Shown: positions 60,389 to 64,000 of the stretch, piece by piece
Layout of the letters: each line of letters opens with the position of its first letter
Position numbering within the stretch: the first letter of the stretch is position 1
DNA from: Hyalangium ruber
Lineage (GTDB): Bacteria; Myxococcota; Myxococcia; Myxococcales; Myxococcaceae
Direction of reading: 5' to 3'
DNA: 64,000 bases
NCBI RefSeq assembly: GCF_034259325.1
Contig: NZ_JAXIVS010000004.1
Span: forward strand, 186,001-250,000
The notes under the pieces: model-generated
What the model was told of the DNA's origin: nothing
Seen by the model: only the letters and a program-made list of their open reading frames with translations
Databases searched by the model: none
Position numbers and translations under genes: made by a program

Positions 60389-60546
60389 GCCGGAAATTCG
60401 AAAGGCCAGTTCCCTTCCGCGCAACCCCATGGGAGGGCGGCCTGGGCAGTCGTGTCCCTCAAGGGGCTACGCGGCCTGTCCACCCGAAGCCCCCAGTGCT
60501 GGAAGCTCCGTTGCAAGCGCGCCTGCGCTGTGTGTACCGTTCAACA

Positions 60547-62526: not shown

Positions 62527-62618
62527 CGCTCCCTTCCGACAAAATCTATACGGGAGAGCAGTGTCGGAGCCCGGTGCGAGGTGACCTCCCGCCAGCAAGG
62601 GCGAGGAGGAGGGCAGAG

Positions 62619-62882
62619 ATGGGACGGGCGGGGGTGGACAGGCAGGGGTATGGCAACGAAGCGGAGACCGCGGCGGTCCGCTTCCTGGAGGCGCGGGGAT
62701 ACCGCATCCGGGCGCGCAACTTCCGGTGCCGCTATGGCGAGTTGGACTCTATCCCGCCTATGCGCCCGCAGGGCGGCCCATACCGCCCTTCCGAGCAAGT
62801 GAGCCATAAGGGGCTCCCCTTCCCGATCGCGAGATGGACTAGCGTGCCCCCTGCTCCAGGCACGCACAGGGCCTACTTGTAA
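62619..62882 (+). pseudogene. yraN (UPF0102) gene truncated after its first motif
   Basis: From the ATG at 62619, with GAGGAGG upstream, the product begins GYGNEAETAAVRFLEARGYRIRARNFRCRYGELD, the unmistakable N-terminal part of YraN-type putative nucleases. After GELD at about 62753 the family sequence (DLIA..., VFVEVK) is replaced by unrelated residues and a stop. The nuclease active site is therefore lost. The break probably marks the end of inserted DNA. Confidence 0.78.
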
Positions 62883-62916
62883 TCCCAGGCATGCCAGAGC
62901 GTCAGGGAGGCTGGAA
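62753..62916. other. Junction region between broken yraN and the next gene
   Basis: Sequence changes character at about 62753. A short inverted repeat (AGGGCGG - CCCATA - CCGCCCT, 62769-62788 approximately) lies near the junction but has no T tract. No other feature seen. Confidence 0.4.
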
Positions 62917-64000
62917 GTGCATCTGTCGGATGCCAGAGGCAAGGTCGATTTCGGCATCATCACGATCCGTGAGGATGAGTTCGAAGCGGTGCTTGCCCGC
63001 CTCCCCCACCACGTTGGCCGTGTGAAGGGGCGGCGGCAGTACAACTTGCGGCGTGTACCGCTCCCCGGAGGGGACTCCTACCTGGTCGCGGTGCTGCGTT
63101 GCATCGAGCAGGGCACCGGTGAGGCCCAATCCGCAGCGCACGATCTCCTGGAAGACCTGGACCCTCCCTGGTTGTTCGTCGTCGGCATCGCGGGAGGTGT
63201 CCCCTCGGACGAGTTCAGCCTCGGCGACGTCATCGTCTCGAACCGGATCCATGACTTCAGCGTCGAGGCCGTGCTCCAGGACAGCAGCCTCGAATACGCT
63301 CTGGCTGGCGGTCCCATGGACAAGAACGCGGCCGCGCTCGCCGCGAACCTGCCCGCGCTCCGAGCGGAGCTTGGCGAGTGGAGTTCCGCCGAGTCGATCG
63401 CCGCTCCACGGCCGCTCATCCGCATCGAGGACTCCTCCCTCTACGGAGATGGGTCCTGGCAAACCAAGGTTCGTAAATCCCTTACGCGCCATGCGGGGCG
63501 AATGCAGCCGGTGGCCTTGTCTGGCGCGATCGCCTCCAGCGATCGCCTCATCAAGAACACGGACATCCTGGCAGTCTGGCTGAAGGTGGCGCGGCAGGTG
63601 CTCGCCATGGAGATGGAGTCGGCAGGGATCTATCGGGCCACGTACGGCCGGCCGATCTCCACCCTGTCCATCCGGGGAATCAGTGATGTGGTCGGCTTCA
63701 AGCGCGACCCGGAGTGGACGCGGTATGCCTGCCATACGGCCGCGGCGTTCATGCTCGCCCTCATGAACACCCGCCCCATCGAACCAGGGGCGCATTCCTC
63801 CTCCGGAGCGCAGGAGCGCAAGCTCCAGTCCTGGGTTGCCCAGTGGCCTCTGCCTCGCGTCGCGAACGTGGACCCCTACCACGTGCTGGGTGTCACCGAG
63901 TCCGAGCTCGCAAGGCGGTATGCCCGGCAGGCGGAACGGCCGCCCTACATCCTTCGCGACGTGGACTCGGAGCTCGACAAAGCCTTGACGATGAGTGACC
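62917..64000 (+). CDS. N-terminal part of a large protein with a nucleoside phosphorylase-like domain (runs off window)
   Basis: From GTG 62917, with GGGAGG upstream, the frame is open for 361 codons to the window end. Residues 8-290 form a purine nucleosidase/phosphorylase domain: FGIITIREDEFEAVL at the start, FVVGIAGGVPSDEFSLGDVIVS, MEMESAGIY (the substrate-contacting Met-Glu pair) and SIRGISDVVGFKRD. After a linker come PYHVLGVTESELARRYARQAERPPYILRDVDSELDKAL, which in relatives I recall leads into a P-loop NTPase and repeats. I infer a STAND-type or TPR protein, possibly anti-phage, but the deciding part is outside the window. Confidence 0.78.
   Translation, partial: MHLSDARGKVDFGIITIREDEFEAVLARLPHHVGRVKGRRQYNLRRVPLPGGDSYLVAVLRCIEQGTGEAQSAAHDLLEDLDPPWLFVVGIAGGVPSDEFSLGDVIVSNRIHDFSVEAVLQDSSLEYALAGGPMDKNAAALAANLPALRAELGEWSSAESIAAPRPLIRIEDSSLYGDGSWQTKVRKSLTRHAGRMQPVALSGAIASSDRLIKNTDILAVWLKVARQVLAMEMESAGIYRATYGRPISTLSIRGISDVVGFKRDPEWTRYACHTAAAFMLALMNTRPIEPGAHSSSGAQERKLQSWVAQWPLPRVANVDPYHVLGVTESELARRYARQAERPPYILRDVDSELDKALTMSD

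What the first reader, a model, noticed from the sequence alone, without database searches (positions are those of the whole stretch)
62917..64000. Phosphorylase-domain protein at the edge of an insertion: candidate defence gene
The frame joins a complete nucleoside phosphorylase-like domain to the start of another domain beginning PYHVLGVTESELARRYARQ. Enzymatic domains of this family occur as effectors in STAND and related immune proteins in bacteria and fungi. The gene starts right after yraN was broken, so it sits in inserted DNA. A nucleotide-depleting effector in a sensor ATPase would fit anti-phage defence.
Basis: partly seen in the sequence, partly recalled or inferred. Interest (0 to 1): 0.6.

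Follow-up and report, generated by a model that had tools for sequence, protein, structure and literature searches.

The report
Nucleotide-destroying enzyme on immune-receptor core
The gene at the edge of the window encodes a 1,166-residue protein that joins an enzyme of the type bacteria use to destroy ATP during phage infection to an ATP-driven switch and a long repeat sensor, so it is very probably a suicide-type immune receptor, and it shows two immune modules stitched together by gene shuffling.

Summary
The frame at 62917 runs to window-equivalent 66417 (1,166 aa): a PNP/MTA-nucleosidase-like domain (aa ~1-290), a P-loop NTPase (~305-640) and TPR repeats (~680-1157). The gene is a chimera. 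Nucleotides 1-869 are ~74% identical to PNP modules that relatives carry on a Pycsar-type TIR or a protein kinase; nucleotides 904-1977 are 73% identical to the NTPase-TPR core of another relative, which has transmembrane helices instead of PNP. Other PNP relatives are fused to a DRT8 reverse transcriptase, NB-ARC-TPR, NACHT-HEAT, or SAVED beside a CBASS cyclase. Other carriers of the core bear caspase, trypsin-like or transmembrane N-termini. Catalytic residues are retained; the nearest solved enzymes are nucleosidases. A model of a 66%-identical core matches SAMD9, a STAND-TPR protein and the AVAST5 filament. Best reading: a single-gene NLR/Avs-like abortive-infection receptor cleaving (d)ATP-like nucleotides. 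Neither substrate nor phage protection was tested. Correction: yraN is intact elsewhere in the genome; the piece here is a truncated second copy, and no obvious defence genes adjoin. PNP effectors in NLR-like systems are already published: a new variant of a known kind.

The parts
62917..64000 (+). Whole gene as far as the window goes; GTG start, 1,166 aa, stop at window-equivalent 66417 (L003:1918-5418)
62904..62909 (+). AGGGAG ribosome-binding-like sequence 7 nt before the GTG
   Evidence: sequence read directly
62917..63786 (+). PNP/MTA-nucleosidase-like effector domain, aa 1-290
   Evidence: PF01048 2.7e-13; PADLOC CBASS effector 'PN-superfamily' 8.7e-16; profile versus PDB MTA/SAH nucleosidase 5e-23
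62977..62979 (+). Glu21, invariant; position of the MTA nucleosidase water-activating Glu (assignment by alignment and family knowledge)
63613..63618 (+). Met233-Glu234, invariant ribose-binding motif
63673..63687 (+). Arg253...Asp257 (RGISD), both ends invariant; Asp257 is at the position of the catalytic acid
63787..63820 (+). Junction: DNA similarity to PNP relatives ends at gene nt 869-876, similarity to the NTPase-TPR relative begins at nt 904
63829..64000 (+). Start of the NTPase-TPR core (QSWVAQWPLPRVANVDPYHVLGVTESELARRYARQ...PPYILRDVDSEL); Walker A, WLDDL and TPRs lie beyond the window at L003:3016-5390
62607..62747 (+). Truncated second copy of yraN (start codon 62619), broken after 62747; intact yraN is on contig C15

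Best explanation
A single-gene immune receptor of NLR/Avs type. The C-terminal TPR array senses an invader cue, or disturbance of a host process (inferred). The central STAND-like NTPase then exchanges or hydrolyses nucleotide and assembles (inferred from family). Assembly activates the N-terminal PNP-fold nucleosidase, which splits the base from ATP/dATP or a close nucleotide, stopping the cell and the phage (inferred from the published (d)ATP-degrading PNP effectors). Shown here: the three-part architecture, retention of catalytic and P-loop residues, and origin of the gene by joining a portable PNP effector to an NTPase-TPR core that elsewhere carries other effectors.
For: Architecture PNP - P-loop NTPase - TPR in one 1,166-aa frame. 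The PNP module is shared with defence-type proteins: TIR 72%, kinase 72%, DRT8 RT 49%, NB-ARC-TPR 47% and 39%, NACHT/HEAT 41%, SAVED 31% beside an annotated CBASS cyclase. E21, S207, M233-E234, R253 and D257 are invariant in 13 fusions. The profile hits MTA/SAH nucleosidases at 5e-23, far above DeoD phosphorylases at 5e-7. The NTPase core is reused with TM helices (helices read by eye), a trypsin-like domain and a caspase. The AlphaFold model of the core of L015 (66% identical in the NTPase, pLDDT 86) matches SAMD9 at 4e-10, STAND-TPR 6mfv at 4e-8 and the AVAST5 filament at 3e-5. The DNA-level chimera junction lies within about 34 nt. PMC10952713 lists PNP as a (d)ATP-degrading/cell-death effector in CBASS, Detocs, pAgo, DRT8 and NLR-like systems.
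Against: There is no activity, substrate or phage data. The locus has no obvious defence-gene neighbours. The PNP could instead make a signal (proposed in PMC7159879) or hydrolyse another nucleoside. The NTPase of this very protein scores no Pfam or PADLOC family and its profile finds nothing convincing in PDB sequences; STAND identity rests on homologues' weak nSTAND3 and AAA_16 hits and on the fold match. The PNP model itself failed (pLDDT 34).
Confidence: 0.75

Rival explanations
1. A housekeeping nucleosidase or phosphorylase with a regulatory tail, working in purine or SAM salvage.
For: The domain's nearest solved relatives are MTA/SAH nucleosidases, and catalytic residues are kept.
Against: The close PNP relatives are all in large fusions with TIR, kinase, RT, NB-ARC or SAVED domains. 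The NTPase core occurs in 3 of 195 genomes of the phylum, this one included. No NCBIfam equivalog cut-off is reached (45 versus 169 bits for MTA/SAH nucleosidase).
Confidence: 0.04
2. Immune receptor, but the PNP domain makes a signalling molecule (releases a base or modified nucleotide as second messenger) that acts on a separate effector.
For: Proposed for PNP domains in vWA/VMAP systems and GTPase-centred conflict systems (PMC7159879).
Against: No partner effector gene is adjacent. PNP effectors in DRT8, CBASS and NLR-like systems are listed as degrading (d)ATP (PMC10952713).
Confidence: 0.09
3. Regulatory or allorecognition/developmental cell-death switch of a multicellular bacterium, not mainly anti-phage, using the same enzyme and switch.
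For: The core homologues found are from Actinomycetota and Myxococcaceae, groups with many complex life cycles; PNP_UDP domains are paired with NLRs in fungi (PMC9815663).
Against: The PNP modules are shared with CBASS-, DRT8- and Pycsar-type proteins, which are anti-phage. Presence is sporadic rather than conserved with development.
Confidence: 0.12

Closest known systems
PNP (Cap17-type) (d)ATP-degrading effectors of CBASS, Detocs, pAgo, DRT8 and NLR-like systems (Rousset et al. 2023, as listed in PMC10952713)
   Same: Same PNP_UDP_1 fold family; PNP module 49% identical to one fused to a DRT8 RT and 31% to a CBASS PNP-SAVED; catalytic residues kept
   Different: Here on an NTPase-TPR core that PADLOC and Pfam do not recognise; ATP cleavage not shown for this protein
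Avs5 / AVAST type 5 (SIR2-nSTAND3-TPR/Sel1; PMC12931631)
   Same: Effector - nSTAND3-like NTPase - helical repeat layout in one protein; the core model matches the AVAST5 filament (3e-5)
   Different: PNP nucleosidase in place of SIR2; nSTAND3 not detected in this protein itself
SAMD9 family (PMC5445408), animal antiviral proteins also present in actinomycetes
   Same: STAND-like P-loop NTPase followed by TPRs; best fold match of the core model (4e-10)
   Different: No AlbA, SIR2-like or OB domain seen; effector is PNP
PNP-NB-ARC/NACHT-repeat proteins of bacteria and fungi (for example L074, L078; L113 in this same genome; fungal NLRs, PMC9815663)
   Same: PNP effector, STAND NTPase, repeats
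   Different: NB-ARC or NACHT NTPases rather than this one; PNP of L113 is only distantly similar (E 8.5e-4)

Membership tests
PNP_UDP_1 superfamily | Significant Pfam match over the catalytic domain | tested here: met
   50.3 bits versus cut-off 25.1, aa 39-268
MTA/SAH-nucleosidase-like (hydrolytic) branch rather than phosphorolytic PNP | N-terminal Glu, ME motif and catalytic Asp conserved; profile closer to nucleosidases than to DeoD | tested here: met
   Invariant E21, M233-E234, R253, D257; 5e-23 versus 5e-7
(d)ATP-degrading PNP immune effectors (Cap17-type) | Sequence kinship with PNP modules of CBASS and DRT8 | tested here: met
   31% over the domain to PNP-SAVED beside an annotated CBASS cyclase; 49% to PNP fused to Drt8 RT
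(d)ATP-degrading PNP immune effectors (Cap17-type) | Cleaves ATP/dATP to adenine and (deoxy)ribose triphosphate | not testable with these tools
   Needs an enzyme assay
STAND NTPases | P-loop (Walker A) and acidic Walker B | tested here: met
   GHSKAGKS and IVWLDDL, conserved in most of 21 homologues
STAND NTPases | Recognised STAND family or fold | tested here: inconclusive
   nSTAND3 in 3 of 20 homologues, AAA_16 in 10 of 20, scores below curated cut-off where shown; Foldseek SAMD9 4e-10, STAND-TPR 4e-8; VIA rows covered mainly the TPR part
STAND NTPases | Variable N-terminal effector and C-terminal superstructure-forming repeats | tested here: met
   TM, trypsin-like, caspase and PNP N-termini; TPRs C-terminal
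STAND NTPases | Winged helix and GxP/HETHS-type motifs after the NTPase | not tested
   No structure-based motif assignment was made
Avs5 | SIR2 N-terminal effector | tested here: not met
   PNP at that place
SAMD9 family | AlbA, SIR2-like and OB domains flanking NTPase-TPR | tested here: not met
   Only PNP, NTPase and TPR found by sequence in 1,166 aa
Any anti-phage defence system | Protection against phage | not testable with these tools
   Needs a plating assay

The most novel reading that the evidence does not exclude
The NTPase-TPR core belongs to an uncharacterised receptor family, spread over actinomycetes and myxobacteria and related in fold to human SAMD9 and to Avs5, that swaps effectors freely (PNP nucleosidase, caspase, trypsin-like protease, membrane helices). 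This gene would be its ATP-destroying version, made by a gene fusion whose two parental halves still exist in sister genomes.
Probability: 0.45. Interest if true: 0.6.

Novelty: new variant of a known kind. Interest (0 to 1): 0.45.

Why it matters
It gives a clean, DNA-level case of an immune receptor made by joining an effector from one defence family to the switch-sensor core of another, with close relatives of both halves in the same bacterial family. It also points to a receptor core not recognised by the Pfam and PADLOC libraries used here, whose fold resembles SAMD9 and Avs5 and whose effector can be exchanged, so effector function could be tested by domain swap with natural relatives.

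Tried and rejected
Housekeeping enzyme with short tail: rejected by the extended frame. 'yraN broken by insertion': rejected, intact copy on C15. No contiguous empty site was found in 12 relatives: the upstream gene (94% in G128 and G132) and the downstream GST gene (up to 96%) match at separate places. No relative in the phage collection; no relative of the PNP-NTPase part in viral contigs, two weak PNP relatives there. No PHROG match. The PNP fold model from three rows failed, pLDDT 34. VIA-align listed mainly TPR proteins, so it did not test the NTPase. The NTPase profile found nothing convincing in PDB sequences (best 0.015). The full protein was not sent for folding because the tool admits only window sequence and loci from certain searches; the 66%-identical core of L015 was used instead. 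The primary ATP-nucleosidase paper is not held; its claims are taken from PMC10952713 and PMC11249213.

Full report
Observation. The frame starting GTG at 62917 is real and runs out of the window. The window is G000:C4:186001-250000 of a 10.77 Mb genome; the nearest relatives of the gene lie in the same family, one of them a Myxococcaceae MAG. Extending the contig gives a 1,166-aa protein ending at window-equivalent 66417. Pfam finds PNP_UDP_1 at aa 39-268 and TPR families from about aa 680 to 1157. The middle has a Walker A (GHSKAGKS, aa 367-374) and IVWLDDL, with no Pfam family in this protein.

Effector. PADLOC's closest model is a CBASS effector of the 'PN-superfamily'. A profile of 13 PNP modules hits MTA/SAH nucleosidases in PDB at 5e-23 and DeoD phosphorylases only at 5e-7, so hydrolysis is likelier than phosphorolysis. 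E21, S207, M233-E234, R253 and D257 are invariant in all 13; their roles are assigned from knowledge of MTA nucleosidase.

Modularity. In the phylum search (195 genomes) the PNP module occurs in other large fusions: with a CAP12/Pycsar TIR (L071, 72%), a protein kinase (L072, 72%), a DRT8 reverse transcriptase (L073, 49%), NB-ARC-TPR (L074, 47%; L078, 39%), C-terminal to a NACHT/nSTAND-HEAT protein (L076, L077, about 41%) and in an unassigned 973-aa protein (L075). More distant versions are PNP-SAVED next to an annotated CBASS cyclase (L083) and an HNH-endonuclease fusion (L084). The NTPase-TPR core has two relatives in the phylum, 66% and 49% identical in the NTPase, both with transmembrane N-termini (helices read by eye), and a broader set in actinomycetes with transmembrane, trypsin-like (L018) and caspase (L111) N-termini. 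None of the 26 genome-contig loci matched the PNP part.

Chimera. At DNA level gene nt 1-869 align to L071 and (to 876) L072 at 73-74%, and nt 904-1977 to L007 at 73%, with no overlap. The join therefore lies within about 34 nt, window 63787-63820.

Core. Foldseek of the AlphaFold model of the L015 core (pLDDT 86) puts SAMD9 first (4e-10), then a STAND-TPR protein (4e-8) and, lower, the AVAST5 filament (3e-5). These alignments span NTPase and TPR together with large rmsd, so they support layout and fold class, not close kinship. Homologues' nSTAND3 hits are below the Pfam cut-off.

Context. The 141 bp at 62607-62747 are a truncated second yraN; the intact one is on C15. Neighbouring genes are not defence genes by Pfam. 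The surrounding DNA is a mosaic: parts match different places in relatives at up to 94-99%. Insertion is plausible but its ends were not defined.

Mechanism and prior art. Shown: architecture, residue conservation, modular exchange. Inferred: sensing by TPRs, switch by the NTPase, activation of the nucleosidase, (d)ATP loss and abortive infection. PNP effectors that degrade (d)ATP are already reported for CBASS, Detocs, pAgo, DRT8 and NLR-like systems (PMC10952713; Detocs/PNP also PMC11249213), SIR2-nSTAND3-TPR for Avs5 with Walker A needed for immunity (PMC12931631), and SAMD9-family proteins in actinomycetes (PMC5445408). The gene is therefore a new variant of a known kind.

Noticed in passing
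L113:2109-7190 (G000:C1, about 735.6-740.7 kb): The same genome encodes a second, 1,694-aa protein that reads as PNP - NB-ARC-like NTPase - TPR; frames of similar length (1,700-1,900 aa) with weak PNP matches recur in several Myxococcaceae. Domain reading by eye.
   Followed up: partly
window 60401-60487: An ~85-bp dispersed repeat: 9 places in this genome and many copies at 77-95% identity in relatives, just upstream of the EGF/FG-GAP gene.
   Followed up: partly
L071:6884-7663: A frame resembling a tyrosine recombinase lies directly upstream of the PNP-TIR gene, hinting that the PNP modules travel on mobile DNA (read by eye).
   Followed up: no
L073:7157-9760: PNP fused to a DRT8-type reverse transcriptase in a relative, matching the published PNP-DRT8 association.
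   Followed up: yes
L075:229-3147: A 973-aa PNP fusion whose C-terminal two thirds have no Pfam match; the sequence looks HD-phosphohydrolase-like by eye.
   Followed up: no
window 62607-62747: A 5' fragment of yraN, 85-86% identical to yraN of several relatives and to the genome's own intact copy, ending abruptly after codon 43.
   Followed up: yes
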